Source of the DNA: Lentisphaerae bacterium WC36
GTDB lineage: Bacteria; Verrucomicrobiota; Lentisphaeria; Victivallales; SZUA-371
Length of the DNA: 64,000 nt
Assembly (NCBI GenBank): GCA_020683205.1
Contig: CP085689.1
Span: 434,001 to 498,000, forward strand
Reading direction: 5' to 3'
Shown: one piece after another, positions 1 through 64,000 of the stretch
Numbering within the stretch: the stretch's first letter is position 1
How the letters are laid out: each line of letters opens with the position of its first letter
Position numbers and translations under genes: made by a program
The notes under the pieces: generated by a model
Database searches by the model: none
What the model was told of the DNA's origin: nothing
What the model saw: the letters and a program-made list of their open reading frames with translations, nothing else

Positions 1-1
1 T

Positions 2-9346: not shown

Positions 9347-9383
9347 TATTAAATTTGCAACTAACTAAAAAGGAATAATAATA

Positions 9384-9890: not shown

Positions 9891-9927
9891 TTTATAGTTT
9901 TTTGGAATCAGTGGTATTTTACACTGC

Positions 9928-9997
9928 GTTGATTGAAAATTAAAAGTGAAGGCTTTAAGGTGACGGGAGGTTTAGCACTTAGGTAGTATCTAAGTGC
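9928..9997 (+). repeat. Cassette boundary element 7, hairpin type
   Basis: GTTGATTGAAA block ending ACGGG, then the GCACTTAG/CTAAGTGC hairpin (9975-9997). It combines the ACGGG ending, elsewhere mostly seen at no-hairpin junctions, with the hairpin leader. Confidence 0.8.
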
Positions 9998-10691: not shown

Positions 10692-10704
10692 TTTGGAGAA
10701 AAAT

Positions 10705-11061: not shown

Positions 11062-11139
11062 GTTTAAATGAAAGAATGGACTAAACATTAAATGAGAAAT
11101 AATTTGTAAGCTCTGTTGTTTTATGCTGTTTTGTGCTGT

Positions 11140-11179
11140 GTTGATTGAAAATTAAAAGTGAAGGCTTTAAGGTGACGGG
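11140..11179 (+). repeat. Cassette boundary element 8, no hairpin
   Basis: GTTGATTGAAA block ending ACGGG, followed by CTGTTGTCGTTTATGGGG and core entry at V-Y-G-V-M-L. Confidence 0.78.
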
Positions 11180-11199
11180 CTGTTGTCGTTTATGGGGTT

Positions 11200-48202: not shown

Positions 48203-49426
48203 GTAAACGGCAGTGCGGCAGTTGAGTTAGAGGGCAAAGTTGAAGTTATTGACGGTAAAAAGTTGATTGTTTTAGCAGAAGATTCAACTGGTAAAAAATC
48301 ATCAGTTGTTAAAGATATTCCAAATTCAGAAAGTTATGTTTATGATGTTAATGGTAACTTAAAGAATGATGGTAATTACAATTATTACTGGAATTGCGAA
48401 AATCGTTTAGTTAAAATGTTAAACACTACTCAAAAGTTAGAGTTTAAATACGATTACATGGGTCGTCGTCGTGAAAAGAAAGTTTTCGAAAAAGAAAACA
48501 ACGAATGGGTGCTAAAATCACATAAATCATTTATCTATAACAAATATAAGCTAATAAAAACCGTTGATGAGTTGAATAATGGCTCAATAAGTGATAGATT
48601 TGTATGGTTAGGTGATAATTTATTGGCATTAGAAAAAGATGGTGTGGTATTTAATTACATCGCTGATGGCAATAAAAATATTACGCAGTTGATTGATATG
48701 AGTTCGGGTTCAATAGCGAATCGTTATGATTATTCGCCATTCGGTCAGTTATCGTTAGATAACGAGACCGTGGCGAATCCATTCAAATTTTCAAGCGAAT
48801 ATGCCGAAAAAGAAACAGGTCTAGTTTACTATAATTACCGTTATTACAACCCAAGCACAGGCAAATGGCTCAGCAGAGACCCAATCCAAGAAGCTGGCGG
48901 AGTAAATGTATATGGATTTATAAAAAATAGTACAATAAATTACTATGATTTACTTGGGCTACATTGTCGTAATTGTGGTGTAGAATTAAAAGATTGCATA
49001 AAAAATGCATTGGAATCTTTTGCTAAAAATATGGAAAGATTGGCTAACGAACTTGTAGATTTAGAGTTTAAATTGTTTCAAGAAGCTTTCAAGCAATTTA
49101 CTGATGCAATGAACGCATCCCAAAGAGCTTATGAGAATAGAATTGAGTATTGCGAAAGTTTACCAAGGAAGAGTATACTTGATAAAATTTCATATATGAG
49201 TTGTAAAGCGGGGGCGGCTACTGCTCATGCGGTTGCAACAGGTGTAGCGGCAGCATCTTATGCTAAGGCAACATTGGCGATAGGTGCTATTATTGCTGCA
49301 TATAAGGCTGGAGAAATGGCCTTTTATAAGGCACAATTAAAGCTTGAGTTTGACGAGTGTATAGTTAACTTTGGTTCTTGTAGAGCGGGCTATGGAAAAG
49401 ATAAAAATGGGTGTCCATGTGATTAA
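48203..49426 (+). CDS. Orphan Rhs core fragment plus tip (cassette B1)
   Basis: The frame opens after a TGA and runs through the longest core piece of the second array: A-V-E-L-E-G-K-V-E-V-I-D-G, YDVNGNLKNDGNYNYYWNC, F-K-Y-D-Y-M-G-R-R-R, VWLGDNLLALEKDG, RYDYSPFGQLS, YYNYRYYNPSTGKWLSRDPI. It has no initiating ATG. The tip (about 155 residues) has a coiled helical part, an Ala-rich hydrophobic segment (AAATAHAVATGVAAASYAKA-type) and eight or more cysteines, including C-R-N-C-G and C-P-C-D at its ends. Toxin type not recognised. Confidence 0.72.
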   Translation, partial: VNGSAAVELEGKVEVIDGKKLIVLAEDSTGKKSSVVKDIPNSESYVYDVNGNLKNDGNYNYYWNCENRLVKMLNTTQKLEFKYDYMGRRREKKVFEKENNEWVLKSHKSFIYNKYKLIKTVDELNNGSISDRFVWLGDNLLALEKDGVVFNYIADGNKNITQLIDMSSGSIANRYDYSPFGQLSLDNETVANPFKFSSEYAEKETGLVYYNYRYYNPSTGKWLSRDPIQEAGGVNVYGFIKNSTINYYDLLGLHCRNCGVELKDCIKNALESFAKNMERLANELVDLEFKLFQEAFKQFTDAMNASQRAYENRIEYCESLPRKSILDKISYMSCKAGAATAHAVATGVAAASYAKATLAIGAIIAAYKAGEMAFYKAQLKLEFDECIVNFGSCRAGYGKDKNGCPCD

Positions 49427-49444
49427 AACGGAGTATAATAGAAT

Positions 49445-49624
49445 ATGAAAACAAATATATTGCTTAATGTTTTTGCATTATTTGGTTTTTTGTTGATGCT
49501 TATTGGAATGGGAAATTTATATTATGAGTATGGGGATAAAATTGTATCGCTACCATTAAACACAATCGGTGGAATGATTTTTTTATTTTGTGCTATATAT
49601 CAATCTAAAAATAAAATAAAATAA
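49445..49624 (+). CDS. Small membrane immunity candidate for B1
   Basis: 59 residues from an ATG with CGGAG 9 bases upstream, 18 bases after the tip stop. Two membrane helices (about 5-25 and 38-54) joined by a short acidic loop (YYEYGDK). Its position in the cassette makes it the candidate partner; short two-helix partners also occur at 51727. Confidence 0.55.
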   Translation: MKTNILLNVFALFGFLLMLIGMGNLYYEYGDKIVSLPLNTIGGMIFLFCAIYQSKNKIK

Positions 49625-49670
49625 TATGTATTTTCAACGATATGAAAATTTAAAATTGCAGTATTAGTAA

Positions 49671-50531
49671 TTTATTGTAGGTGGCAATAAAAATATCACG
49701 CAGTTGATTGATATGAGTTCGGGTTCGGTTGCGAATCGTTATGATTATTCGCCTTTTGGTCAGCTAATTGCGGACGTAGAAACGGTTGAAAATCCATTCA
49801 AATTTTCAAGCGAATACGCTGAAAAAGAAACAGGCTTAATTTATTACAATTACCGTTATTATAACCCAAAAGATGGAAAATGGTTATCCCGCGATCCAAT
49901 TGAAGAAAAAGGCGGAATAAATGTTTACGGTTTCGTTGACAATGATACTATAAAAAATATAGATAGTTTAGGCTTAAAAAAAGTGGAAAGTGATTTAGAA
50001 TTTTATGTTGAGGATTCGTGGGAAACTTTTAAATATGGTAATAAAGATGGTTATAATGGAACAAATGGTGCAAACCTGGCTTCTTCGATAAAAAATGTTA
50101 AAATATCCTGTGATAAGTCGTGTGGAGAAAAAGGATCAAACCCTAAAAAAATAGGGAACGGTAAAAACCTTGAATTATATACTTTAATAGACAAAGGCAT
50201 TGAAGTAAAATATGTTACAGAATCTTCTACATGGTTTAAGATAACAACAGTTAAAGCTTATAGATTAACAATCAAATATAGAAGATATAAAGTTGAAAAT
50301 TATAAAAGTGAAGAGTGGGATTGCAATTGTTGTGATAAAGGTTTTTTGTCTTGGAATAAACCTAAAGTTTTACTTGTAGGACAAAAAAGGTTCGAATTTA
50401 CTGCAAAGATATATTTCGTAAAAAACAAAGAACTTATTACTACTCTTAAAATGCGAAAAATAGAGTGGGACGAGATTAAAAAAGACGTATTGAAAAAATT
50501 GATTGGAGTTGCGACAAAAAAGGTATTGTAG
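49671..50531 (+). CDS. Orphan Rhs core fragment plus tip (cassette B2)
   Basis: Core enters at G-N-K-N-I-T-Q-L-I-D and continues through RYDYSPFGQLI and RYYNPKDGKWLSRDPIEE; a TTG at 49704 is the only start-like codon. The tip (about 185 residues) begins after D-S-L-G-L and is mixed alpha-beta, rich in Lys and aromatic residues with C-N-C-C-D in the middle. Not hydrophobic. No catalytic motif recognised. Confidence 0.7.
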   Translation, partial: FIVGGNKNITQLIDMSSGSVANRYDYSPFGQLIADVETVENPFKFSSEYAEKETGLIYYNYRYYNPKDGKWLSRDPIEEKGGINVYGFVDNDTIKNIDSLGLKKVESDLEFYVEDSWETFKYGNKDGYNGTNGANLASSIKNVKISCDKSCGEKGSNPKKIGNGKNLELYTLIDKGIEVKYVTESSTWFKITTVKAYRLTIKYRRYKVENYKSEEWDCNCCDKGFLSWNKPKVLLVGQKRFEFTAKIYFVKNKELITTLKMRKIEWDEIKKDVLKKLIGVATKKVL

Positions 50532-50543
50532 AGGTAAATCACT

Positions 50544-50954
50544 ATGGGAAAATATATAAATATATCAATTGTTTTTTTGACCATTTTAGTTATTTTATTT
50601 TTCATTATATATACAATAAAGAAGGAGGAATTTATTGTTAAAAGATTAATTTCTACTAATCTTTCAACATATACAAATTATGGGGCACAGAAAATAGTTT
50701 GTTCTATAAATCTTAATAAGATAGGAAAAAAACAAAATTCTTTTGTTAAAGATATATTGAATAGAGAAGAAAAAATACAATTATCTGATCATTATTACTT
50801 GAAGAAGATAAGTGATAATGAGACAAAATATATTTATGCTATTTTTGACTATAGAGATAATAAAATAAACGAATTTTGTTCAATAAAAATAGATAGTAAT
50901 TATTTAATATTTTTTTTTAATAAGGATGCTTTGAAACTACTTCATTTGTTTTAA
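50544..50954 (+). CDS. Membrane-anchored immunity candidate for B2
   Basis: 136 residues: membrane helix at about 5-24, then a soluble domain of about 110 residues. GAGGT lies 8 bases before the ATG, 12 bases after the tip. No family recognised. Confidence 0.58.
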   Translation: MGKYINISIVFLTILVILFFIIYTIKKEEFIVKRLISTNLSTYTNYGAQKIVCSINLNKIGKKQNSFVKDILNREEKIQLSDHYYLKKISDNETKYIYAIFDYRDNKINEFCSIKIDSNYLIFFFNKDALKLLHLF

Positions 50955-51051
50955 ATATAAAATTCTTTTTTTCTATTTTATTGATTTTATGAATATAGCA
51001 AACATAAACATTTTGAATTATAGTATAACAGTTTTTTGTAAATAAAATGTT

Positions 51052-51694
51052 ACGCAGTTAGTTAATTAGGCAAATGGAGAAGTCGTTAAAAAATGACTAC
51101 ACTCCGTTTGGACAATTAGCAAAAACAGATGAGAATGTTGAAAACGTATTCAAATTCAGTTCTGAATATGCTGAAAAAGAAACAGGTTTAATCTATTACA
51201 ATTACCGTTATTATAATCCAAGCACAGGAAAATGGCTATCCCGCGACCCAATCGAAGAAGACGGAGGTGAAAACATTTATGGTATAGTTGACAATAAACC
51301 TTTAAATAATATTGACAAATTAGGACAAAAAACGTCTACTGCTGCCGTTAATCCTCAACTTGTTGAAAAAATAATAAGAGCTATATTAGCTGGTGGAGCT
51401 GCAGTTTATAGTTGGCTTATTGCTGTAGCATGTGATGTTGGGGAAACAATTATTGACGAATACGAAGCCAGATGCAGTAAATATTGTACTAATGGGTGTA
51501 GGTATTGGAGGGTCACTGGAACACAAAAAATTAAAAAAACATATAAGTGTGTTTCTGTTTGGTGGATTCCTGGACACAAAAAAGGATGGACTAAGCTTCG
51601 TAAAACTGAAAAAACACCTTGTGAGGCAGAATGTGGTAATCCTCCTCGTAAAGAAAGCCCTATATATAGTCCAAATAGTGGTCCTTTTACTTAA
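51052..51694 (+). pseudogene. Orphan Rhs fragment with frameshifted core and intact tip (cassette B3)
   Basis: Core enters at T-Q-L-V-N but a TAG follows and two bases are missing at AAAAAATGAC (compare AAATATGAC at 52017), so the core frame is broken. After the shift it reads DYTPFGQLAKTDENVEN to IDKLGQ without interruption, then a tip of about 120 residues with a hydrophobic helix and nine cysteines (C-S-K-Y-C-T-N-G-C) and a Trp-rich middle. Probably a stored, untranslated tip. Confidence 0.68.
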
Positions 51695-51726
51695 TTTTTT
51701 GTAAAATAATCTTAGGAGAAAATATT

Positions 51727-51978
51727 ATGCTAGAAAAAATATTTTATTTTTGTTGTTATTTAACATTTGGTTCTTTTTTGGCTATTTATGGTATTATGAT
51801 TAATCATATATTTATCAGCAAAGTAGGGTTTAGTATTTTTACTAAATTTATAAATCAAAAAACTTTTTATGTTGCTACTTCAATATTAAGTTTAAATTCC
51901 TTGATTATAGCAGTTATAGGAATTTATTTTTTAAAAAATCTAACAAAGCTTAAAAAAGTAAATATTGAAGATTCATAA
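51727..51978 (+). CDS. Small membrane immunity candidate for B3
   Basis: 83 residues with two membrane helices (about 5-28 and 48-70). AGGAG 9 bases before the ATG. The gene ends 4 bases before the next core fragment begins. Confidence 0.57.
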   Translation: MLEKIFYFCCYLTFGSFLAIYGIMINHIFISKVGFSIFTKFINQKTFYVATSILSLNSLIIAVIGIYFLKNLTKLKKVNIEDS

Positions 51979-51982
51979 ATGA

Positions 51983-52759
51983 CATATTAATTTGACAAAT
52001 GGAGAAGTCATTAAGAAATATGACTACACTCCATTTGGACAATTAGCAAAAACAGATGAGAATGTTGAAAACGTATTCAAATTCAGTTCTGAATATGCTG
52101 AAAAAGAAACAGGCTTAATTTATTACAATTACCGTTATTATAACCCAACAACAGGCAAATGGATAAAGCGTGACCCAATTGGCGAAGACGGTGGAGCAGG
52201 TTTGTATGTAATGATTGATAATGATTGTGTCAATTATATTGATAATTTAGGATTAAGTAATAAGAAACGTAAACAAAAAAAGCGTGATAGAAATAAAAGA
52301 CAGAATGAGAAAAAGAGAAAAGAAGGAAATAGAAACAAAAATAAAAGAAAAAAGCCTAAAGGAAAGCGTAAACCAAAGCGTAAAGGAAGTAAAACAAATA
52401 TTTCCGCTACTGGATTAGCAGAAGCTGCTATAAATTATAAGAAATGTTTAGATGACGCAGAAAAAGATTTTGATTGGCGTTTAGGGCGGTGTTCTTGTCC
52501 TTGGACTGAACCAAAAGACCAAGGGCAATGTATTGATGACGCCGTGGATCTTTTCGTAATAGAAGCAAAGATTTGTGCGGTACAATATGCAATAGATAGT
52601 GCAAAATCAATAGTGCCTGAAGAGGCTGGAGATGCAGGCGATACTATCGGCGAAATAATAAAAAATTATCCTAAAAAAGAACAAGGACCTCCAGTATTTC
52701 AGCCTGCACCTCCGTTTTTAGCTCCAATAAATGAAAATAAATATCCAGATTTTGCGTAA
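51983..52759 (+). CDS. Orphan Rhs core fragment plus Lys/Arg-rich tip (cassette B4)
   Basis: Core enters at I-N-L-T-N-G-E-V and ends at I-D-N-L-G-L. The tip then has about 45 residues made almost only of Lys, Arg, Asn and Gln (K-K-R-K-Q-K-K-R-D-R), a short helical domain with six cysteines (C-S-C-P-W-T) and a Pro-rich tail. The basic run could bind nucleic acid or membrane phospholipid. The first start-like codon is TTG at 51992. Confidence 0.68.
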   Translation, partial: HINLTNGEVIKKYDYTPFGQLAKTDENVENVFKFSSEYAEKETGLIYYNYRYYNPTTGKWIKRDPIGEDGGAGLYVMIDNDCVNYIDNLGLSNKKRKQKKRDRNKRQNEKKRKEGNRNKNKRKKPKGKRKPKRKGSKTNISATGLAEAAINYKKCLDDAEKDFDWRLGRCSCPWTEPKDQGQCIDDAVDLFVIEAKICAVQYAIDSAKSIVPEEAGDAGDTIGEIIKNYPKKEQGPPVFQPAPPFLAPINENKYPDFA

Positions 52760-52775
52760 AAAAAGGAATCATAAA

Positions 52776-53795
52776 ATGAAAAAATTATTGAACATAGTGT
52801 TTATTGTATTTGTAACATTTACTTCTTTTGCTTCAAATGAAAAAATAATTAAAGTAACAAATGGGAAAATTAAGTTTTCAATTCAAACGACGGGGGATGA
52901 AAATTATTATATCAAAAAGGCAAATAATTATAGTGAATCCCGAAAAAAAACATCAAAAGATTTTCTTACTTTATTTATATATAATAGAAATAACGATAAA
53001 GTAATGAGTATCTCGCTTGATAATTTAAGAGAAAAAATATCATCAGAGAAGCTAGAAAATTATATTAAAGTTGATAGAAAAAAAATATATCATTCCATAA
53101 TTAAACAAGGATTGTTACAAAATAAAGATTTTAAAGGATATTATATCTTGGGTGAAAACAAATATTCCTATAACAAAAGAAAAACACAAGGAGAAAAAAT
53201 AGAATATACATTGGATTCAATGTTTAATTATGGAGATTATGTTGTAGATGTCAGATGTTATCTTAAAAATACTTCCATGTCAAATAAATTGATAAAAATG
53301 TTGGAATCTATTAAAATAACAAAAAGCGAAACAAAAACTATAAAAAATAAAGATTCAAAATTGACTAATAAACTTTGCTTTTATGGAAAGAACATCTTAA
53401 AGGTTCAAATTAAATTACGATCAATTGATAAATTAAAAAAGATAATGGTTTTCGATGTACTAAAAAACAATAAAAATGTAGGAAATATAAATGTATCAAG
53501 TTTAGATATGATGTTTTTAAACAAAGATTTTTTCTTAAAATATGTAAAAACTATAAAAAATACAATGTGTCAAAATAGTAGTAAAATTAAAGAAATAAAA
53601 TATGAGAAGTTTAATGGTTTTTACTTTACGGGAGAATTAAAAAATATTAAAGTAAAACAAAATACACCCAAATTATGGATAATCGCATGTTGTCAAAATC
53701 AGTTGCTTATATTTACATTAAGTTATGACTCCAATGAGGACATTGATAAATATTTAAATTATTTTAAAACAGTAAATTTTAAGATGAGCAAGTAA
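52776..53795 (+). CDS. Secreted immunity candidate for B4
   Basis: 339 residues from the ATG with AAGGAA upstream, giving a signal peptide (MKKLLNIVFIVFVTFTSFA); a longer in-frame start overlapping the tip is less likely. The mature part looks like two similar halves, each with a Y-K-V-D/Y-V-K-T region and a G-Y-Y-I-L-G-E or G-F-Y-F-T-G-E strand. A periplasmic partner implies a tip that acts in or crosses the envelope. Confidence 0.62.
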   Translation: MKKLLNIVFIVFVTFTSFASNEKIIKVTNGKIKFSIQTTGDENYYIKKANNYSESRKKTSKDFLTLFIYNRNNDKVMSISLDNLREKISSEKLENYIKVDRKKIYHSIIKQGLLQNKDFKGYYILGENKYSYNKRKTQGEKIEYTLDSMFNYGDYVVDVRCYLKNTSMSNKLIKMLESIKITKSETKTIKNKDSKLTNKLCFYGKNILKVQIKLRSIDKLKKIMVFDVLKNNKNVGNINVSSLDMMFLNKDFFLKYVKTIKNTMCQNSSKIKEIKYEKFNGFYFTGELKNIKVKQNTPKLWIIACCQNQLLIFTLSYDSNEDIDKYLNYFKTVNFKMSK

Positions 53796-53802
53796 AATTA
53801 TA

Positions 53803-54816
53803 GATGAGTTGAATAATGGCTCAATTAGTGATAGATTTGTTTGGTTAGGTGATAATTTATTGGCATTAGAAAAAGATGGTGTGGTATTTAATTACATCGC
53901 TGATGGCAATAAAAATATTACGCAGTTGATTGATATGAGTTCGGGTTCAATAGCGAATCGTTATGATTATTCGCCATTCGGTCAGTTATCAAAAAATACC
54001 GAAACTGTGGCGAATGTATTCAAATTTTCAAGCGAATACGCTGAAAAAGAAAGCGGCTTAGTTTATTATAATTATAGATATTACAACCCAACTAACGGCA
54101 AATGGCTCAGCAGAGACCCCGTTAGAGAACATGGTGGTAAAAATATTTATGGGTTCGTCGCTAATAATTCTATTGATTTTGTTGATGTATTAGGACTTGC
54201 TTTTACAGAAGAGGGTAAATTATGTAAAAGTAATAATTATAGGGTTAGTTTTGATATTTCAGAATATTTAGGAAAAAAGGCTAGAAAAATTGGAATTTAT
54301 GCTTTAAAACTCAATATAAGTGCAAGTTTTAAAAATTGTTGCGTAATTTGCCCAAATATGAAGAAGGGAAAAAAGAATTCTTTAAATGTTTCGGTTTCTT
54401 TAATTGGTGAACTAGGAAGTAAAGAACATGATTTATGGATCTTGAAGGTAAGAGCAGGATGGTATGGAAGACTTTCTGCTTCGGGTAGTATTGGGAAATC
54501 TTATAATAGTTGTAAAGGCTCTGGAGCTGATACGGGAAGTGTTGGTTTTAAAGCAGAGGTTGGATTAATTCTTGAGTTTATAGCAGAATTACCCAAAGAC
54601 ATTATTACACTTACAGCTGGGGCTCGTGGAGGCGTAAGTATTTCTGGACGATTATCTGCATCCTGCAGCAGTGCAGGATGTAGATATACTGTAAAAACCT
54701 GTATAGCAGCCAATGTTCGTTGGTGGGTACAAGGAAAAAGGAGTTTTGGTAGAAAAAAATCTTTTAATTATTTTCAGGAATTTTCTGCAGTTGGGTGTAA
54801 AAATTATACATTTTAA
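53803..54816 (+). CDS. Orphan Rhs core fragment plus Gly/Ser-rich tip (cassette B5)
   Basis: Core enters at D-E-L-N-N-G-S-I-S-D-R-F and is intact to VDVLGL. The tip (about 205 residues) is beta-rich with Gly/Ser repeats (YGRLSASGSIGKS, ISGRLSASCSS) and scattered Cys pairs, resembling an amphipathic beta-barrel more than an enzyme. A similar composition is seen in the tip at 57470-58021. Activity unknown. Confidence 0.68.
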   Translation, partial: DELNNGSISDRFVWLGDNLLALEKDGVVFNYIADGNKNITQLIDMSSGSIANRYDYSPFGQLSKNTETVANVFKFSSEYAEKESGLVYYNYRYYNPTNGKWLSRDPVREHGGKNIYGFVANNSIDFVDVLGLAFTEEGKLCKSNNYRVSFDISEYLGKKARKIGIYALKLNISASFKNCCVICPNMKKGKKNSLNVSVSLIGELGSKEHDLWILKVRAGWYGRLSASGSIGKSYNSCKGSGADTGSVGFKAEVGLILEFIAELPKDIITLTAGARGGVSISGRLSASCSSAGCRYTVKTCIAANVRWWVQGKRSFGRKKSFNYFQEFSAVGCKNYTF

Positions 54817-54829
54817 ATGAGACTTTATT

Positions 54830-55564
54830 ATGACGAAAATTGAAAATTTTATATCGAATAAACTTAAAGAGAAATCAAAAAATGAAAAATTTTATAATTT
54901 TGACTCATTAAATGATTTGATATTTGGATATTTCTATAATGTTTATGATGCGAACGGGTTAATTGGTAAAATTTACGAACTTCAAGCTAGGAGTATTAAT
55001 GAATCTTTAGTAGGAATTGCTATCGGAGTTCGTGATAATTACTCTAATAAAAATGAACTTAATCGATTTGCTTATATATCATTACCAAGCAAAAAAAATG
55101 AGTATGAAATTTTTTCATTTAAAAATACTCCATATAAATTTAATATTAAAAAAAATAAGCAGCTAATTGGCTTTATTAAGGGAGTAAAGCCGAATAGTAA
55201 ATTTTCTAAATTTTTGTTTGAAAAGTGGGGATATATAGGAGCTGTTCCGAAATGGGATCTTTACGATAATAATAATAAAATTATAGCTTCTTTAAGGTGT
55301 AAATTAATTAGAAATAATTCTTTTATAGAACTAAATAATGGAGCTGAGTATAAAATTGATTTTGTAGCACCTCAAAAATTTATGGGATGTTTATTATTTT
55401 TTGCAAACTATTTTAGAAATAATTTAAATTATAAAAAAGATTATGTTATTAAGCCTAAAGATAAATTTAGTGTTTGTGAAAAAGAGAATTCAGAGTATTT
55501 GTTTATTTTTTTACTTTTTTTTAGACTGATAGTGTTTGACTTTGAACCTCAATTTAGTTGCTAA
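54830..55564 (+). CDS. Immunity candidate for B5
   Basis: 244 residues, 13 bases after the tip. No signal peptide. The middle (WDLYDNNNKIIASLRCKL) has the strand pattern of LURP-one/scramblase-like beta barrels, and a hydrophobic segment is near the C-terminus (LFIFLLFFRLIVF). The resemblance is weak. Role inferred from position. Confidence 0.5.
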   Translation: MTKIENFISNKLKEKSKNEKFYNFDSLNDLIFGYFYNVYDANGLIGKIYELQARSINESLVGIAIGVRDNYSNKNELNRFAYISLPSKKNEYEIFSFKNTPYKFNIKKNKQLIGFIKGVKPNSKFSKFLFEKWGYIGAVPKWDLYDNNNKIIASLRCKLIRNNSFIELNNGAEYKIDFVAPQKFMGCLLFFANYFRNNLNYKKDYVIKPKDKFSVCEKENSEYLFIFLLFFRLIVFDFEPQFSC

Positions 55565-55573
55565 TGTTACTAA

Positions 55574-56359
55574 AATATCACGCAGTTAATTAATTTAACA
55601 ACAGGAGAAATCGCTAATAAATACGATTATAGCCCATTTGGACAATTAGCAAAAACAGATGAGAATGTTGAAAACGTATTCAAATTCAGTAGTGAATATG
55701 CTGAAAAAGAAACAGGCTTAATTTATTACAATTACCGTTATTATAACCCAAGCACAGGCAAATGGCTCAGCAGAGACCCAATCCAAGAAAAAGGCGGTAA
55801 AAATTTATATGGCTTTGTTTTTAATGATAGCATTAACAATCAAGATTACAATGGATTGGAGACTAAAGAAGGTCAAAAATTCTTTTACGATGGTTATGAA
55901 AAAATTGTGACAATGCCACGTTCAGCCCCTGGTTCAGATATAGGGGTAAGATGGAGACGAGTTTTGCGTGCCTTAGAGTACACTATAACAGCAGATAAAA
56001 GATGCAAAGGAGAAAGAAAGCTGATAGCTGATATAGGACTAAGAGAGGCAAAATTTAATGTTGTAAATTATATAGATGAAGTGAATATAGGAATTGGAGC
56101 AGTAAGCTTTGGGGTTAAATTTAAGTCCATTAATACTGTTAATTCAGAATCTATATTATCGCCATGTCCAGCTGGTCAGGAAGGTACTGGTACTAAATTA
56201 ATTGTGCATGTTGCTTTATTTAAAATTATTGAAGGATCAGCAACTCCTTCTATAGGTCCATTTTCTGCTGACAATGGTTATTCAGAAGAGATGGGTAAAA
56301 CATTAATGCTTTATTTCAAAGTTGAGTTTGAACAACGATGCTGTTGTCCTAAAAAATAA
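55574..56359 (+). CDS. Orphan Rhs core fragment plus tip (cassette B6)
   Basis: Frame open from N-I-T-Q-L-I-N-L-T-T-G through YDYSPFGQLAKTDENVE and WLSRDPIQEKGG to D-Y-N-G-L. The tip (about 165 residues) is mixed alpha-beta with late cysteines (C-P-A-G-Q-E and a final C-C-C-P). No start codon before the tip except a TTG at its first residue. The following gene is a lipoprotein. Confidence 0.68.
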   Translation, partial: NITQLINLTTGEIANKYDYSPFGQLAKTDENVENVFKFSSEYAEKETGLIYYNYRYYNPSTGKWLSRDPIQEKGGKNLYGFVFNDSINNQDYNGLETKEGQKFFYDGYEKIVTMPRSAPGSDIGVRWRRVLRALEYTITADKRCKGERKLIADIGLREAKFNVVNYIDEVNIGIGAVSFGVKFKSINTVNSESILSPCPAGQEGTGTKLIVHVALFKIIEGSATPSIGPFSADNGYSEEMGKTLMLYFKVEFEQRCCCPKK

Positions 56360-56371
56360 AGGAGTAAAAAT

Positions 56372-56839
56372 ATGAAGTGTAATATAATTGTTTTAATTAT
56401 TTCAATGTTATTTTTTAACGTTAGCTGTGATATTTGTAAGAAAAAAAATGATGGGCGTAAAAACCAAAACAAAGCAGTGGACGATAAAAAAATTGATATG
56501 TCAAAACTAACTTTTTTTTCTCGAGTAAAGGGAGTTAACCAACCAAATATCTTAATTTCAGGCTATTATAATAAGCAAAATCTTTACGCAGCTATTATTT
56601 ACGACGAGAAAAATATTTACTTTTATTATGACGAGGCGTCAAAAAAATATTGTGTTACAAAAATTGGTAAGCAAGGATTTAAAGAACCATTGCAAAAAAA
56701 TCATATTTATTACTATGACGGTAAAGTTGTGCATAAATGTAAAATAAAACAATTAGATGAAGCAGAGTTTGATTCAGCTTTGTCCAAGCTTAACCAAATA
56801 AATAACTTTGAAGATATAAAATCTATTTTCAAAAATTAG
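56372..56839 (+). CDS. Lipoprotein immunity candidate for B6
   Basis: 155 residues with a signal peptide and lipobox N-V-S-C (Cys 19), followed by a Lys/Asn linker and a compact beta-rich domain (YYNKQNLYAAIIYDEKNIYF). AAGGAG is 8 bases from the ATG. A periplasmic lipid-anchored partner suggests protection on the periplasmic side. Confidence 0.62.
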   Translation: MKCNIIVLIISMLFFNVSCDICKKKNDGRKNQNKAVDDKKIDMSKLTFFSRVKGVNQPNILISGYYNKQNLYAAIIYDEKNIYFYYDEASKKYCVTKIGKQGFKEPLQKNHIYYYDGKVVHKCKIKQLDEAEFDSALSKLNQINNFEDIKSIFKN

Positions 56840-56856
56840 AAATTAATATATAATGA

Positions 56857-56879
56857 CATGCCTGTCTAAGATAGGCATG
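56857..56879 (+). terminator. Stem-loop after the B6 lipoprotein gene
   Basis: CATGCCTGTCT against AGATAGGCATG, one mismatch, 17 bases after the stop. It lacks a U-tract, so termination is uncertain. Confidence 0.35.
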
Positions 56880-57021
56880 ACTTGGAATGAAAATAGCCAT
56901 CCATAATTTTTACGAAATTATTTTTTTTACAAGACCAATAACATGGTATGTTATTTTGTATATTCATATTTTTAATTTTATTTTATCAAAAATTTCTAAT
57001 TTAGAACGGTGATAAAACTTT

Positions 57022-57060
57022 AAACACCATAGTTGAAAAATTGTGGTGTTTTTTATTTTT
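57022..57060 (+). terminator. Rho-independent terminator upstream of cassette B7
   Basis: AACACCATAGTT, short loop, AATTGTGGTGTT, then TTTTATTTTT. It separates B6 from B7, so B7 should receive little read-through. Confidence 0.7.
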
Positions 57061-57154
57061 ATTGATTTGTTTTGGTGAGTTAGTTAAGATATATTACTTT
57101 GTATCGAATAACTTTCGGAAGGTGAAAATGTTAAATGAATGTTTAAAATTAGAT

Positions 57155-58021
57155 TGGTTAGGTGATAATTTATTGGCATTAGAAAAAAATGGTGTGGTAT
57201 TTAATTACATCGCAAATGGCAATAAAAATATCACGTAGTTGATTGATATGAGTTTAGGTTCGATAGCGAATCTTTATGATTATTCGCCTTTTGGAAAGCT
57301 AGTACTAAATACTGAAAGCGTGGCGAATGTTTTCAAATTCAGTAGCGAATACGCTGAAAAAGAAACAGGCTTAATCTATTACAATTACCGTTATTACAAC
57401 CCAAGCACAGGAAAATGGCTCAGCAGAGACCCAATCCAAGAAAACGGAGGAATAAATTTATATGCTTTAGTTAATAATGATGTTGCAAATTACTGGGATT
57501 TACTCGGAAAAAAATGTGTGCCAAAACTTGTAACAGGATCTTTCACAGCAATCGGGAAAAACTATGCGAAAGAAAAAGGGTGGTGGTTTGATGAATTTTC
57601 TTACTCAGGTTGGGTTAATCCTAGTGATTCTGGACTAACAATTTCTGTATCAGCTTACGGATATTCCTTTCTATATATGCGAGAAGGGTATGCTATAGCA
57701 AAAGATCTTTCCGTTTCAGTTAGTTGTTACTGTAATAAAAATGACGGGAAATGTTATGCTTCAATTAGCAGCACAGGTGATGGAAATGATACGGATTACC
57801 CTGTTTCAGTAACAGTTGTTGCTGGTATTTCTAGCTCAGGAGATAGCGCTACTGCTAGAGTTAGTGGTGGAGCTGCATTCTTAGCTAAAGGAAAAGGAAA
57901 AATTGGCGGAAGCGTTGGAGGTAAAGTAGGAGCTGTTAATGCTGAGATTGAATTTGAGTCAACTAAGCATCAAAGATCATTTCAATTGGGCTCTTATACT
58001 TGGGTTTGTGAGAAACAATAA
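57155..58021 (+). pseudogene. Orphan Rhs fragment with amber stop in the core and intact tip (cassette B7)
   Basis: Core enters at W-L-G-D-N-L-L-A-L-E-K. At 57236 the CAG codon of the usual T-Q-L-I-D motif is TAG, one base change that stops the core. The frame then continues LIDMSLGSIANLYDYSPFG to D-L-L-G-K. The tip (about 180 residues) is Gly/Ser-rich and beta-like (GGAAFLAKGKGKIGGSVGG), with C-Y-C and a Trp-rich start. Probably stored and silent. Confidence 0.72.
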
Positions 58022-58045
58022 CATTTTTAAATAAGGATAAAAAAT

Positions 58046-58381
58046 ATGATTAAAGATAAAAATACAAACATAAAAACTGTTACAATTATTTATTGGACAT
58101 CTTTTTTAATGACTGGATTACTTATTCCATTATACATATGGCCAATTATTTCAATATTTCCTTTTCTTTGTTTATTGATTTATTCTTGCATTATTTTTAA
58201 TGTTGTTTCAAAAAAAAACAGAATATATAAATGTTTGTATTTTTATTCAATTATTATTATTATTTTAGGCTGGTTGTTAATTGGTTTGAGACTTTATCAG
58301 TTTTATAAAAAAAGAGAACATATTAAGGCCAACATGCAAAATATGTTCGAAATGATTGAACAAAAATCACTCAATAAGTGA
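58046..58381 (+). CDS. Membrane immunity candidate for B7
   Basis: 111 residues with three membrane helices (about 8-30, 33-52 and 62-85). AAGGA precedes the ATG. Its last codons and stop are provided by the next core fragment (S-L-N-K read in another frame from TCACTCAATAAG), so the native 3' end was replaced when the B8 cassette joined. Confidence 0.58.
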   Translation: MIKDKNTNIKTVTIIYWTSFLMTGLLIPLYIWPIISIFPFLCLLIYSCIIFNVVSKKNRIYKCLYFYSIIIIILGWLLIGLRLYQFYKKREHIKANMQNMFEMIEQKSLNK

Positions 58382-59399
58382 TAGATTTGTTTGGTTAGGT
58401 GATAATTTATTGGCATTAGAAAAAGATGGTGTGGTATTTAATTACATCGCAGATGGCAATAAAAATATTACGCAGTTGATTAATTTAACAACAGGAGAAA
58501 TCGATAATAAATACGATTATAGCCCATTTGGACAATTAGCAAAAACAGATGAGAATGTTGAAAACGTATTCAAATTCAGTTCTGAATATTATGAGAAAGA
58601 AAGTGGTTTAGTATATTATAATTACCGTTATTATAACCCAAGCACAGGTAAATGGATCAACAGAGACCCAATCCAAGAGTATGGTGGGTTAAATACTTAT
58701 GGTTTTGTTAATAACAATTCAATAAGCTATATAGATTGGCTAGGATTATCATTAGATATTCCTCATATGACTATTCCTGATGGAGGCGGTGGTAGCGGAG
58801 ATGATATTGATGATAAAAAGAAAGAATGTAATAAAAATGAATGTTCTCAAGAACTTATAGATCAATGTAATAAAGCCTATGAAAAAATTAAGAAAAATGC
58901 TAATAATTTACGTAATGAATGGGAAAAATATGATCCTGTAAAAGACGCAACTGGTGGTTATAAAGGAAAAGGAGTAAAACTAACTGTACCTGGTGGACAT
59001 TATATAGAAATGATCAATAATATAAATGGTATTAATAAGGCTCTTAAAACAATATCTAAATGTCTAAGATGTAAAAATTTTCCAGATCATAAAAAAAAGC
59101 TCCCCAAATGGATAAGAGATTTAGCTAGTAAACCAATACCTAAACCTAAAGGAGTTGAAGGTCTTCCAGAACAACCAGAGGTGGAGCCTGATCCAGTTAG
59201 ACCAAACTACCCTAAACCTAGTCCAGCGCCTGAATCTACTCCAGTTCCTCCAGTTGTTCCTGTCCCTATAGGAGGTAGATTAGGAGGAAGAGTGCCAAGA
59301 CATTCAAATTTTGGAATAGTTCCTGGAGGATTAGGTGGTGGACCATGCTTACTACCAGGTAGTGGTGGAGGGCCAATTAATCGAAGAAGAAAATATTGA
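58356..59399 (+). CDS. Orphan Rhs core fragment plus Pro/Gly-rich tip (cassette B8)
   Basis: Core enters at H-S-I-S-D-R-F and is complete to I-D-W-L-G-L. The tip (about 220 residues) has an acidic Gly linker, a helical Cys-containing domain (E-C-N-K-N-E-C; GGHYIEMINNINGINKALK; C-L-R-C) and a Pro-rich tail (PKPSPAPESTPVPPVVPVP) ending in Gly-rich sequence. The helical domain is the likely effector. The candidate partner gene is cytosolic. Confidence 0.68.
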   Translation: MNKNHSISDRFVWLGDNLLALEKDGVVFNYIADGNKNITQLINLTTGEIDNKYDYSPFGQLAKTDENVENVFKFSSEYYEKESGLVYYNYRYYNPSTGKWINRDPIQEYGGLNTYGFVNNNSISYIDWLGLSLDIPHMTIPDGGGGSGDDIDDKKKECNKNECSQELIDQCNKAYEKIKKNANNLRNEWEKYDPVKDATGGYKGKGVKLTVPGGHYIEMINNINGINKALKTISKCLRCKNFPDHKKKLPKWIRDLASKPIPKPKGVEGLPEQPEVEPDPVRPNYPKPSPAPESTPVPPVVPVPIGGRLGGRVPRHSNFGIVPGGLGGGPCLLPGSGGGPINRRRKY

Positions 59400-59442
59400 C
59401 AAATTATGCCTAAAAAAATAACTTTAATGGAATATTCTATTT

Positions 59443-60087
59443 ATGATGAAATATAAATATTTTACAAAAGAAAAAATAGCAGAGTTAAAGAAATTAAGTC
59501 AGCTAAATTTAGCTGACTTAAGGAAAATTTCTAATGAACAATTAATTAACTTAATCGTTTATTACTACAAATTTCCTATGAGTAATGAATATATTGTAAG
59601 AAATGATGAGAATTTTAATGAAAATGCATGCCATGCTGTTAGATATCACTTTAAATTTAAAATTCAATATGTTATTGGCTGCATATTTTACTTGTTAGAA
59701 AATATTGGAAAAGACAAAGATTGTTCTTTTGGAGTCGAACATTTGATGTTTATATTATACCCTTGGGCATATCCCATTCATTTTTGTTCTATTAAAGACC
59801 ATTTGGAAGCAAGTCATAAATATAATCCTTTCGACTTAAAGAAAGATAGTGAGTTTATAAAATTTACAGAAATAAAATGTAAACTTATATTCACTGTTAT
59901 AGAAAGAATATTCCAAGATGAAATTTTTGCCATACCATATGTCGACCGTTATGCAATTGCATATTTCTGGTTTCATCTGTCAAAGGATAAAAGTATTAAT
60001 AAAATAAATATTGGTGAAAGTATTTGGGATGGCGATTTTGACGAAATAGAAGAATTTCTTATTTTTTATAATTTATCTAAATTATAG
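59443..60087 (+). CDS. Cytosolic immunity candidate for B8
   Basis: 214 residues, no signal peptide; mostly helical with aromatic-rich segments (HFKFKIQYVIGCIFYLLENI). Two adjacent ATGs can start it. No family recognised. Being soluble, it should meet its tip in the cytosol. Confidence 0.55.
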   Translation: MMKYKYFTKEKIAELKKLSQLNLADLRKISNEQLINLIVYYYKFPMSNEYIVRNDENFNENACHAVRYHFKFKIQYVIGCIFYLLENIGKDKDCSFGVEHLMFILYPWAYPIHFCSIKDHLEASHKYNPFDLKKDSEFIKFTEIKCKLIFTVIERIFQDEIFAIPYVDRYAIAYFWFHLSKDKSINKINIGESIWDGDFDEIEEFLIFYNLSKL

Positions 60088-60100
60088 CTATATTGTATCT

Positions 60101-60955
60101 GGTAATAAAAATATTACACAGTTGATTGATATGAATTCGGGTTCAATAGCGAATCGTTATGATTATTCGCCATTCGGTCAGTTATCAAAAAATAACGAAA
60201 CCGTGGCGAATCCATTCAAATTTAGTAGTGAATACGCCGAAAAAGAAACAGGTCTAATCTATTACAATTATAGATATTATAATCCTGTAAACGGCAAATG
60301 GCTAAAACGTGACCCAATCGGTGAAAGAGGCGGAATGAATGTTTACGGTTTTGTTAATAATAACCCAATTTATGAGCAGGATTATTTAGGACTATTTAGC
60401 TATGACATGCCAATTGATACAGGACGTATTGAGTTTGGACTTTTTTGGGTTAGGCTAAAAATTAACATTCACTGGGAAATAAATGTTGAAGCTAATTCTA
60501 GTAAGGAGAACTGTCCTACAAAATTACCAAATGGGATTAGGGATGTCAGCGGTGTTACACAACTAAGTGATGGATTAGGTTGGGATTATAAAATTGGTGT
60601 TGAGGGTGATAATTATAAGGCTATAGTTGGATTCAAAATGGGAATTACAACTTCGGGTGATAATGCATTAATGCAATTTATAAATCTAGAAAGGCATTTT
60701 AGCTCATACCAAGAATTTGAAGGTGAAGCTCAAGTTTTTGTGCCGAGCTTTAATTATAAAGGAATAAAAACACCTTGTGCATGTATTAAGGGTAAAATGT
60801 CTGCTGATTTTGAATTTAGCTATGGTCAATATGATACAAGGGTTTTGATTGCTGCTGGAATATTAATTGCGTTGGCTGAGCCTACTCCAGCTGGTGAACT
60901 TACACTTGCCGCTGCTGGGTTAACATTATTTGTTTTACCACCATTTTTTGAATAA
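60101..60955 (+). CDS. Orphan Rhs core fragment plus tip (cassette B9)
   Basis: Core enters at G-N-K-N-I-T-Q-L-I-D and is intact to D-Y-L-G-L. The tip (about 190 residues) is beta-rich with W-V-R-L-K-I-N-I-H-W, a C-A-C-I pair and a C-terminal hydrophobic hairpin (VLIAAGILIALAEPTPAG, then AAAGLTLFVLPPFF), which could insert into membrane. The only start-like codon is TTG at 60122. Confidence 0.66.
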   Translation, partial: GNKNITQLIDMNSGSIANRYDYSPFGQLSKNNETVANPFKFSSEYAEKETGLIYYNYRYYNPVNGKWLKRDPIGERGGMNVYGFVNNNPIYEQDYLGLFSYDMPIDTGRIEFGLFWVRLKINIHWEINVEANSSKENCPTKLPNGIRDVSGVTQLSDGLGWDYKIGVEGDNYKAIVGFKMGITTSGDNALMQFINLERHFSSYQEFEGEAQVFVPSFNYKGIKTPCACIKGKMSADFEFSYGQYDTRVLIAAGILIALAEPTPAGELTLAAAGLTLFVLPPFFE

Positions 60956-60976
60956 TTATAATTTAATAGGAATTTT

Positions 60977-61318
60977 ATGAATAATCTATATAAAAAAAAA
61001 GTAATTGGTCCGTTTAAAAGAAGCTTTTTAAAATGTTTAATATTGTTTGTTATAGCATCCATTATTGAATCAAAACATAATATTAAATTTTGTCAATTTT
61101 GGTTAGGAGGGACACTGGTTACAATAGGTTATTATTATTACCGTATTTATACATCTAAACCAGTTGTTGCAAAATTTGATAAAAATAGTGAAGCAAATAC
61201 TTACTCTATAAAATCTGATGATGGCATAGAAATTATTTTGCCCATTAACCACGAAAAGCTAACTGAAGAAAATGGTGAAATTATTTTAAAACTAGGAGTA
61301 GTCTGTAGTAGAAAATAA
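60977..61318 (+). CDS. Membrane immunity candidate for B9
   Basis: 113 residues: basic N-terminus, two hydrophobic segments (about 15-30 and 38-55) and a soluble end. AGGAA precedes the ATG. Fits the pattern of a membrane partner for a tip with a hydrophobic hairpin. Confidence 0.55.
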   Translation: MNNLYKKKVIGPFKRSFLKCLILFVIASIIESKHNIKFCQFWLGGTLVTIGYYYYRIYTSKPVVAKFDKNSEANTYSIKSDDGIEIILPINHEKLTEENGEIILKLGVVCSRK

Positions 61319-61338
61319 ATTAAAACTCAATTGTTTAA

Positions 61339-61689
61339 GATGAGTTGAATAATGGCTCAATAAGTGATAGATTTGTATGGTTAGGTGATAATTTATTGGC
61401 ATTAGAAAAAGATGGCGTAGCATATAATTACATCGCAGATGGCAATAAAAATATCACGCAGTTAGTTAATTTAACAACAGGAGAAATCGCTAATAAATAC
61501 GATTATAGCCCGTTTGGACAGTTAGCAAAAACTGATGAGAATGTTGAAAACGTATTCAAATTCAGTAGCGAATACGCCGAGGCTGAAACAGGACTAATGT
61601 TATTACAACCCAAGCACAGGAAAATGGATCAGCAGAGACCCAATCGAAGAATATGGAAGCTGGAATATTTACAACTTTGCCTTCAGTGA
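61339..61689 (+). pseudogene. Frameshifted Rhs core of cassette B10
   Basis: Core enters at D-E-L-N-N-G-S-I-S-D-R-F and reads correctly to E-A-E-T-G-L. There about 14 bases (usual CTATTACAATTACC) are missing, shifting the frame, so the following Y-Y-N-P-S-T-G-K-W is read in another frame and this one ends 30 codons later. Confidence 0.75.
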
Positions 61690-62413
61690 TCCAGTAAATT
61701 ATTTCGATCACTTAGGATTAGAACTTGGGGGAAATATGACATTGGGACCTGGTACAACATGGAAAGATACTCCTAAACCAAGAATTAGATTTGATATAGA
61801 TAAGCAAAATTGTGTTATAACTTATAAAGTTTTAGTACAACTTCTTTTTAAAGGTAAATGGACAGAGGCTAGAAAAATTGCGTTTAGAAATAAATTGAAA
61901 ATTGCTATTGAAAGTACATTCAATAGTACAAATTTTAAAATAAAACCTAAGAATAAAAAGGATAAAGATGGCAACTGTTGTCCTTGCCCAAATGGTTTTA
62001 GCCCAAAAGTCAAAATCAGTTTTGTTCCAGATGGGCAGTGGAGTACAGATGAAGATTGGGAAGCTGATGTACACGCAAACCCTACAAAAAAACCTATGCA
62101 ATCATCTAATTTAGGAAAATGGGCTGACCTTGACGAAGATGATTTAAGACCACAACCAAAACCATCTTCAGCACCAGGAGTAACACAATTGCCAGCTGTA
62201 CATGAATTTGGACACTTTATTGGACTTGATCATCCAGGAGTAGGAGTCGCAGGTGATGAATATAAACATAAAGGAAAAGATAGAAATGGAAATGACGTTG
62301 ATGGAGGACATGATTTGATGGGAGGAGGTAATCAAGTTAGACCCTTTTATTTTGATAAATGGAAAAATAAGCTAAATAGTAAAAACTCAGGATGTAGCTA
62401 TGAAACAAAGTAA
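61598..62413 (+). CDS. Metzincin-type metalloprotease tip (cassette B10)
   Basis: Continues the core in the shifted frame (Y-Y-N-P-S-T-G-K-W-I-S-R-D-P-I-E) into the tip; the first ATG is at 61736. Counting from that ATG, the tip has H156-E-F-G-H160-F-I-G-L-D-H166, the HExxHxxGxxH zinc site of metzincins, and a downstream D-L-M-G-G-G (Met 195) as Met-turn, with D-K-W typical after it. Two C-C-P-C cysteines lie earlier. It should cleave proteins in a target cell. Intact as a domain although its core is broken. Confidence 0.8.
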   Translation, partial: CYYNPSTGKWISRDPIEEYGSWNIYNFAFSDPVNYFDHLGLELGGNMTLGPGTTWKDTPKPRIRFDIDKQNCVITYKVLVQLLFKGKWTEARKIAFRNKLKIAIESTFNSTNFKIKPKNKKDKDGNCCPCPNGFSPKVKISFVPDGQWSTDEDWEADVHANPTKKPMQSSNLGKWADLDEDDLRPQPKPSSAPGVTQLPAVHEFGHFIGLDHPGVGVAGDEYKHKGKDRNGNDVDGGHDLMGGGNQVRPFYFDKWKNKLNSKNSGCSYETK

Positions 62414-62768
62414 AAAAAAAGTTTTTATGAGTTTATTTTTTATAATTTGTTGTTTGATTTTTATCTTTAATTACTTTTTTTTCAAAAGTTCTATTAGGTC
62501 TAATATAAATTTTTTTATAATAAAATATAAACTGACAACGATTTCAAATATTAAAAATGAAAAAGAAACATTTAAAGAAATTAATAATCTTATGATACGC
62601 ACACATTTATGGCTCAGTTTTTATGATAAGAATGGACAAATTGTGAAACCCCAAATATGTGGTCATTGGAATAGAGTTAAGTCAGTTGCTTTTTGCTTAG
62701 AAGGCAAAAATGATATATTTTATGAATTGAAATCTAATCAAAACCTTGGTCAATTATTGGGGGAGTAA
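62400..62768 (+). CDS. Membrane-anchored immunity candidate for the metalloprotease tip
   Basis: 122 residues overlapping the end of the protease gene by 14 bases. Lys-rich start, one membrane helix (about 8-30), then a soluble domain of about 90 residues with two cysteines. The topology would place the soluble part in the periplasm. No known inhibitor family recognised. Confidence 0.58.
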   Translation: MKQSKKKVFMSLFFIICCLIFIFNYFFFKSSIRSNINFFIIKYKLTTISNIKNEKETFKEINNLMIRTHLWLSFYDKNGQIVKPQICGHWNRVKSVAFCLEGKNDIFYELKSNQNLGQLLGE

Positions 62769-62786
62769 CACTGAGAATGATTTTAA

Positions 62787-63842
62787 TTAATTTATAACAA
62801 ATATAAGCTAATAAAAACCGTTAATGAATTGAATAATGGCTCAATTAGTGATAGATTTGTTTGGTTAGGTGATAATTTATTGGCATTAGAAAAAGATGGC
62901 GTGGCATTTAATTACATCGCAGATGGCAATAAAAATATCACGCAGTTAATTAATTTAACAACAGGAGAAATCGCTAATAAATACGATTATAGCCCATTTG
63001 GACAATTAGCAAAAACAGATGAGAATGTTGAAAACGTATTCAAATTCAGTTCTGAATATGCTGAAAAAGAAACAGGTTTAATCTATTACAATTACCGTTA
63101 TTATAACCCAACAACTGGCAAATGGCTCAGCCGCGACCCAATCGGTGAAAGAGGCGGAATGAATGTTTACGGTTTTGTTAATAATAATGTTATAAATTAC
63201 TCTGATAGCTATGGATTAAAAAAAGAATATTGTTGTAAAGAAAAAGATATAAATAAAATTGCAGCACAAAAATCGTTACAAGCTTTTAATGAAGCGAAGA
63301 AAAAAATGCATAGAGCCAAACAGCATAGGGAAAAGGAAAAGCAACAAAATGGACATCCAAAAAAAATATATATTATTACTCAATATCCAGAGAAATGTGG
63401 TCAAATTTGTTGTAGTAAAAAAGGGAACGTAAGTGCAACGGGACCTAAGTCAACACATAAGCAAATTAATATCAAATACCTAGGAACTGACAAGAAAACT
63501 AAAAGTAAAATCTACCTAGTGGAAGTGAAGCCAATGTGCAAGACTACGCATCACAAATTAAAGTGCCCTAAAGGAACTAAAACTGTTGCTGATTATCACT
63601 CTCATAGCGCATCACCAAACTTTAGTCGAGATGATTTAGCCATTGCAAATAGACTTGGTAGACCTATTTATTTAGGATATGATGGTACTGTAAAAAAAGG
63701 AACTCCTAAAGGAAATAAAGAATATGAACTTAATGATGGAAGTGGAACAGCAAAAGGTCCAGTTTTTGATGAACATGAAATAGACCCTAAAACAGGTGAA
63801 CAATCATTAATTAGAGAAGATGTTGGGCTTGCTAATTTATAA
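62787..63842 (+). CDS. Orphan Rhs core fragment plus JAMM/DUF4329-like tip (cassette B11)
   Basis: Core enters at I-Y-N-K-Y-K-L-I-K-T, intact to D-S-Y-G-L; TTG at 62829 is a possible start. The tip has a Lys-rich helical start with four cysteines, then V-A-D-Y-H-S-H-S-A-S-P-N-F-S-R-D-D (His 257, His 259, Ser 266, Asp 269 from the TTG) followed by R-P-I-Y-L-G-Y-D-G. The H-x-H-x6-S-x2-D pattern is that of DUF4329 and JAMM-like metallopeptidases in polymorphic toxins. The ending E-D-V-G-L-A-N-L is polar. Confidence 0.74.
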   Translation, partial: LIYNKYKLIKTVNELNNGSISDRFVWLGDNLLALEKDGVAFNYIADGNKNITQLINLTTGEIANKYDYSPFGQLAKTDENVENVFKFSSEYAEKETGLIYYNYRYYNPTTGKWLSRDPIGERGGMNVYGFVNNNVINYSDSYGLKKEYCCKEKDINKIAAQKSLQAFNEAKKKMHRAKQHREKEKQQNGHPKKIYIITQYPEKCGQICCSKKGNVSATGPKSTHKQINIKYLGTDKKTKSKIYLVEVKPMCKTTHHKLKCPKGTKTVADYHSHSASPNFSRDDLAIANRLGRPIYLGYDGTVKKGTPKGNKEYELNDGSGTAKGPVFDEHEIDPKTGEQSLIREDVGLANL

Positions 63843-63856
63843 GAAAAGGTTATAAT

Positions 63857-64000
63857 ATGAAAAAAATATTTATTACATTATTTTATTTATTAATTTTAAG
63901 CTATGTGAATTTAAATGCTAAAAGTAATGATAAATTTATTTTTAATTTAGAATACATCTTGATGAAAGGAAGTTATAAAAATCATTCTCTCAAAAAAATA
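63857..64000 (+). CDS. Secreted immunity candidate for B11 (3' partial)
   Basis: Starts 14 bases after the B11 tip with AAGG upstream. The 48 visible residues hold a signal peptide (MKKIFITLFYLLILSYVNLN, then A) and a short mature start. The gene runs past the window edge. Confidence 0.6.
   Translation, partial: MKKIFITLFYLLILSYVNLNAKSNDKFIFNLEYILMKGSYKNHSLKKI

What the first reader, a model, noticed from the sequence alone, without database searches (positions are those of the whole stretch)
61736..62768. Metzincin-like protease tip with a membrane-anchored partner
HExxHxxGxxH and a Met-turn are clearly present. Protease tips are less common than nucleases in Rhs loci, and the partner's single helix with a soluble part suggests inhibition at the membrane or in the periplasm.
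Basis: partly seen in the sequence, partly recalled or inferred. Interest (0 to 1): 0.55.

Follow-up and report, generated by a model that had tools for sequence, protein, structure and literature searches.

The report
Orphan protease toxin with anchored partner
A gut-type bacterium carries, inside a long row of spare toxin tips, a zinc protease tip paired with a membrane-anchored partner that is probably its antidote; the kind is known, but this protease family appears not to have been described, and this copy is cut off from its delivery protein.

Summary
ORF 61736-62413 has HEFGHFIGLDH and a Met-turn (LMG). Eight related tips keep all zinc ligands, the Met-turn Met and three Cys; a profile of them finds serralysins and other metzincins in the PDB. 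The partner (62400-62768) overlaps the tip by 14 nt and has one N-terminal membrane helix. A second, unbroken copy in the same genome (46-48% identical) has a related partner in the same arrangement; those two places are the partner's only homologues in the genome.
Corrections: (1) the unit is a silent orphan cassette, one of 33 Rhs-core copies in 49 kb, and its core remnant is 14 nt shorter than its siblings, so the tip is out of frame with it. (2) The anchored partner is not special to this tip: 53 of 60 distinct Rhs partners in the genome look exported or anchored, against 20 of 71 control ORFs. Parent Rhs genes carry a signal-like start and no PAAR match.
Best reading: a spare, envelope-acting metzincin toxin with an envelope-anchored immunity protein, working like Tpe-Tpi (VgrG2b), which is instead a gluzincin on a T6SS spike. 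Full-length Rhs with this tip exist in Akkermansia relatives. Activity is untested.

The parts
61345..61582 (+). Rhs-core remnant, first part (ORF 61345-61689 runs on in a different frame from the tip)
   Evidence: weak TIGR03696 match
61583..61720 (+). Rhs-core remnant, last part (profile positions 31-76), in frame with the tip after a 14-nt gap relative to sibling cassettes
   Evidence: (G000:C1:495583-495720, 44.8 bits)
61721..62413 (+). metzincin-like tip (ORF from ATG 61736, 225 aa; open in its own frame from the last part of the core remnant on)
62201..62233 (+). zinc-binding motif HEFGHFIGLDH (residues 156-166)
62315..62323 (+). Met-turn LMG (residues 194-196)
62400..62768 (+). partner, 122 aa, overlaps the tip gene by 14 nt; proposed immunity protein
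62418..62486 (+). approximate N-terminal membrane helix of the partner (about residues 7-29, read from the sequence)
   Evidence: (hydropathy 3.14)

Best explanation
An orphan Rhs toxin-immunity cassette. The tip is a metzincin-type zinc endopeptidase of a small, sporadic Rhs-tip family. When it sits at the end of a full-length Rhs protein it would be exported and would cleave proteins of the cell envelope (periplasm or surface) of neighbouring cells. The partner, held in the inner membrane by one helix with its soluble part outside the cytoplasm, would bind the tip and protect the owner. In the window the cassette is silent or decaying: it has no export part, and its core remnant is out of frame with the tip. 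Shown here by sequence: motif, family, tip-partner linkage, predicted anchored partner, orphan array, frame break. Inferred: zinc binding, proteolysis, envelope target, immunity, delivery to other cells.
For: Zinc ligands and Met-turn in 8 of 8 aligned tips. Their profile hits serralysins (best E 3.4e-5) and other metzincin families in the PDB; all 8 tips match Peptidase_M10 weakly. Three Cys are invariant (8 of 8), and the genome's Rhs tips have 2.9% Cys (369 of 12,553 residues) against a mean of 1.5% in control ORFs, which fits an oxidising place of action. The tip-partner link recurs with the same 14-nt overlap in the second copy, and a whole-genome search with the partner finds only those two places. 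Partners in 5 Akkermansia-group carriers are unrelated to these two but also begin with export-like segments. Full-length Rhs carriers exist: open frames of 1931 and 2350 aa.
Against: No activity or immunity data. The tip model is weak (mean pLDDT 57, residues 170-225 with the Met-turn below 50), and Foldseek finds nothing at E <= 0.001. Export-like partners are the rule in this genome, so that feature does not point to a protease. One carrier (G432) has no co-directional partner, and in G260 the following export-like segment is fused in frame to the tip. Full-length carriers G117 and G260 show no obvious signal peptide, so the export route is not uniform.
Confidence: 0.68

Rival explanations
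1. A decayed relic: the tip no longer has any role and only the partner is kept, as immunity against relatives that still deploy this tip.
For: The core remnant is out of frame with the tip; 2 of 33 core copies in this array have stops inside, this being one. The partner has its own ATG and ORF.
Against: The catalytic ORF is intact over 225 aa with all motifs, and a second copy in the genome is in frame with its core.
Confidence: 0.4
2. A secreted protease for host or mucus proteins carried on a surface Rhs scaffold, the partner being an accessory or chaperone rather than immunity.
For: Two carriers named here are animal-gut MAGs (rabbit and goat); the nearest solved relatives are secreted proteases.
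Against: Partners change completely between carriers while the tip is kept, as for immunity proteins; the cassette sits among dozens of unrelated tip-partner pairs.
Confidence: 0.15
3. A self-processing peptidase that releases something else rather than a toxin.
For: Peptidases that release toxins are common in polymorphic toxins (PMC3482391, passages seen).
Against: The domain is at the very C-terminus, where a releasing peptidase has nothing left to release; a linked partner follows.
Confidence: 0.07

Closest known systems
Tpe-Tpi family: VgrG2b C-terminal metallopeptidase with PA0261 (PMC6899460, passages seen)
   Same: Metallopeptidase toxin domain at the end of a large delivery protein; small downstream gene; immunity protein reaches the envelope as a periplasmic protein, a lipoprotein or an N-terminal membrane-helix protein.
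   Different: VgrG2b is a gluzincin (third ligand Glu) on a T6SS spike; here HExxHxxGxxH and a Met-turn on an Rhs core, with no PAAR match.
Tox-MPTase1-5 and other zincin tips of Rhs toxins (PMC3482391, passages seen)
   Same: HExxH peptidase domains at the C-terminus of Rhs toxins.
   Different: The table passage seen lists no immunity protein for MPTase1-5 and only HExxH-type motifs; no Tox-MPTase model was among the Pfam matches of the 8 tips.
Orphan rhs-CT/rhsI modules (PMC3967940 and PMC3150448, abstract and passages seen)
   Same: Displaced tip with a piece of core and a linked immunity gene, lacking start and export signals.
   Different: Here 33 core copies stand in one 49-kb array, and nearly all partners look exported or anchored.
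Serralysin / matrixin (M10)
   Same: HExxHxxGxxH, Met-turn, weak profile match.
   Different: Below Pfam's gathering score (20.1 against 24 bits); own insertions and conserved Cys.

Membership tests
Metzincin clan MA(M) | HExxHxxGxxH (or D) zinc motif | tested here: met
   8 of 8 aligned tips; the definition is recalled
Metzincin clan MA(M) | Met-turn after the third His | tested here: met
   LMG in 8 of 8, 19-43 residues after the third His
Metzincin clan MA(M) | metzincin fold | tested here: inconclusive
   Weak model (pLDDT 57); top matches are mostly metzincins with Z up to 6.0, mixed with Argonaute chains; Foldseek best E 0.17
Metzincin clan MA(M) | zinc-dependent proteolysis | not testable with these tools
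   needs an assay
Pfam Peptidase_M10 | gathering score | tested here: not met
   20.1 bits against 24
Rhs polymorphic toxin | variable tip directly after the conserved Rhs-associated core | tested here: met
   core profile match next to the tip; second copy in frame with core; relatives on full-length Rhs
Rhs polymorphic toxin | linked gene that protects against the tip | tested here: inconclusive
   linked gene seen twice; protection not testable here
Orphan rhs module | core fragment without export signal, downstream of or apart from a main rhs gene | tested here: met
T6SS PAAR-Rhs effector | PAAR or VgrG part on the parent Rhs | tested here: not met
   only RHS_repeat, plus one sub-threshold ZinT match, in 4 full-length Rhs scanned; the own genome has a VipB gene, so a T6SS may exist
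Tpe-Tpi (VgrG2b) | gluzincin third ligand Glu | tested here: not met
   the third-ligand position of the motif is His in 8 of 8
Tox-MPTase1-5 | match to the family's model | tested here: inconclusive
   none among Pfam matches of the 8 tips; that the Pfam copy holds these models was not checked

The most novel reading that the evidence does not exclude
This Verrucomicrobiota lineage runs a whole Rhs arsenal aimed outside the cytoplasm: Sec-type exported Rhs proteins without PAAR, Cys-rich tips, almost all immunity proteins anchored in or exported to the envelope, and dozens of spare cassettes, of which the metzincin tip is one of the few whose chemistry can be read.
Probability: 0.4. Interest if true: 0.6.

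Novelty: new member of a known kind. Interest (0 to 1): 0.42.

Why it matters
If the tip is an active protease, Rhs toxins gain a metzincin branch with an envelope-anchored antidote: a third His ligand where the known periplasmic T6SS protease toxin uses Glu. More broadly, a genome in which about nine in ten Rhs partners look exported or anchored suggests that Rhs weapons here work in the envelope. That would make it testable how Gram-negative cells deliver Rhs proteins that start with a signal peptide instead of a PAAR spike.

Tried and rejected
No relatives on plasmids or phages (tblastn; a second tip as query, plasmids only), nor in viral contigs (207 pattern matches, 0 confirmed). First genome-contig scan with two tips: 105 pattern matches, 0 confirmed. 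Second scan: 121 pattern matches, 5 called relatives. I rejected two of these: L057 is an ordinary secreted metalloprotease, and L058 shares little more than HETGHM.

Weak hits rejected: G228 in the phylum sample is an ordinary matrixin-type protein outside Rhs. The roughly 640-aa hits in 9 genomes of the Akkermansia-group search match only around the zinc motif and were not followed. G033 and G160 in the class sample are non-Rhs metalloproteases. G315 was not resolved: its locus shows no HExxHxxGxxH.

I first read an ORF near the G432 tip as its partner; it is on the opposite strand, so G432 has none.

Controls against me: with the same export test, 15 of 26 ORFs in the window's own non-Rhs stretch also pass, a higher background than the 20 of 71 ORFs of 120-350 aa (36 of 119 of all sizes) in eight other 20-kb stretches of the genome. 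A cruder first pass gave 49 of 66 next ORFs. Of 30 Rhs loci of carrier genomes, 23 could be scored and 12 of these passed by hydropathy alone, without a lipobox rule.

Viral structure library: nothing at E <= 0.001. PHROGs: one match at E 0.018 to a family of unknown function for the partner, none for the tip. PADLOC: none. Paper searches for a metzincin Rhs effector gave nothing on point. In PMC4885058 the motif belongs to serralysins (passages).

Full report
What is there. ORF 61736-62413(+) encodes 225 aa with HEFGHFIGLDH at residues 156-166 and LMG at 194-196. The zinc motif is the only such match in six frames of the window and did not arise in 200,000 shuffles of the tip. The partner ORF 62400-62768 overlaps the tip gene by 14 nt and starts with a strongly hydrophobic stretch. 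A single-sequence model gives one long N-terminal helix and a small soluble part, at low confidence.

Where it sits. The window is bases 434001-498000 of a 3.66-Mb single-contig genome. Its phylum is Verrucomicrobiota by inference: carriers scored as 'same phylum' match named Akkermansia MAG contigs (lineage). The genome has 70 places that match the Rhs-associated core, 33 of them between 482,731 and 531,371, and the finding is one of these. None of those 33 lies in an open frame longer than 407 aa, so no full-length Rhs gene was seen in that array. Full-length genes with closely similar cores lie elsewhere: 1925 aa (106 of 125 core residues identical) and 1962 aa (100 of 126). Both begin with the same signal-peptide-like sequence. 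Of four full-length Rhs scanned (two from this genome, one of them the 1925-aa gene, and two from Akkermansia-group genomes), all match RHS_repeat and none matches PAAR.

The break. The core remnant of this cassette is 14 nt shorter than four sibling copies, so the first part of the remnant and the tip are in different frames. It is one of 2 core copies in the 33-copy array with stops inside. Intact copies of the tip exist: the second copy in the same genome is in frame with its core remnant, and relatives are on full-length Rhs.

The family. With the window tip as query, 100 genomes (relatives, the own one included) gave a match only in the own genome. A two-tip profile over 387 genomes of the phylum hit 5: the own genome, three of one genus, and one unrelated matrixin. 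In 260 genomes of that genus's family 15 had hits, of which I accept 7, one of them a fragment. In 197 genomes of the own class 4 had hits: the own genome, two with other metalloproteases, and one unresolved. Three carriers match named contigs: an Akkermansiaceae MAG, a rabbit Akkermansia MAG and a goat Akkermansia MAG with a truncated tip. In the 8 aligned tips C26, C84, D107, the three His, the Glu, Y176, L194, M195, G196 and C220 are invariant, among others.

What kind of enzyme. The tip alone is weak against Pfam: Peptidase_M10 at E 6.2e-4 and 20.1 bits, below the 24-bit cut-off, with 8 of 8 tips matching it at E <= 0.1. The profile of 8 finds serralysins at E 3.4e-5, then matrix metalloproteases and snake-venom metalloproteases. 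The AlphaFold model (3 sequences, pLDDT 57) has the order expected of a metzincin (recalled): strand, helix, strands, active-site helix. Fold searches are inconclusive: best Foldseek E 0.17 to ADAM10, best VIA Z 6.0. I take clan metzincin as well supported by sequence and not yet by structure.

The partner. The second copy's partner is related (BLASTP E 3e-5 for the pair), and the whole-genome search with the window partner returns only these two places, the second at E 0.006. Partners of five Akkermansia-group carriers show no meaningful match to these; two of the five resemble each other; all five begin with export-like segments. In one further carrier the export-like segment follows the tip in the same frame, and one carrier has no co-directional partner. 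A conserved toxin with quickly changing, envelope-targeted partners is what was reported for VgrG2b and PA0261 (PMC6899460, passages seen).

The wider pattern. Of 69 Rhs-core places examined (one of the 70 left out because its downstream side is masked), 63 had a co-directional next ORF, 60 of them distinct. Of the distinct ones 53 look exported or anchored, and 58 of the 63 start within 30 nt of the tip's stop or overlap it. With the same rule 20 of 71 ORFs of 120-350 aa in eight other stretches of the genome do (Fisher p 1.3e-12); a neighbouring non-Rhs stretch gave 15 of 26. The rule is crude (hydropathy or lipobox) and starts were not curated. Tips are also Cys-rich: 2.9% against 1.5%. Of 67 tips scanned (of 70 places; 3 too short or cut off), ten Pfam families were matched at E <= 0.001, none of them a nuclease family; two NCBIfam families were matched. 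I read this as an arsenal that acts largely outside the cytoplasm; this is inference.

Mechanism. Most likely a full-length Rhs protein exposes or delivers the tip to neighbours, the tip folds with its disulfides outside the cytoplasm and cuts envelope proteins, and the membrane-held partner blocks it. Export is unclear: parents in this genome start with a signal-like sequence, two full-length carriers from Akkermansia-group genomes do not, and a VipB gene (T6SS) is present in the own genome and in one of six other carriers searched.

Known or new. Orphan Rhs modules are known to become active by recombination with a main rhs gene (PMC3967940, abstract and passages), and zincin tips on Rhs proteins are known (PMC3482391, passages). 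I found no paper in the searched library on a metzincin Rhs tip (listings and the passages named above); subscription papers are mostly not held. So this is a new tip family of a known kind, in an unusually anchored arsenal.

Noticed in passing
G000:C1:482731-531371 (window 48731-64000 and beyond): 33 Rhs-core copies in 49 kb, mostly with different tips and partners, and no full-length Rhs gene in the array.
   Followed up: partly
genome-wide Rhs cassettes of G000: 53 of 60 distinct partners look exported or membrane-anchored (control 20 of 71), and tips are Cys-rich (2.9% against 1.5%).
   Followed up: partly
window 62829-63842: The next cassette's tip resembles DUF4329 / Prok-JAB (sub-threshold), a second possible metallopeptidase tip.
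   Followed up: no
window 1-12100: A second Rhs array behind a 3007-aa Rhs open frame, with hydrophobic tips and repeated cassettes (same tip ends and partner start at 436980 and 439847).
   Followed up: no
L004 (G260): Tip and the following export-like protein form one open frame, either a natural fusion or an assembly error.
   Followed up: no
L066 1506-2825 (G000:C1:1050506-1058482): Tail of a 2659-aa Rhs that reads like a HINT-type stretch; its partner is one of the few that look cytoplasmic.
   Followed up: no
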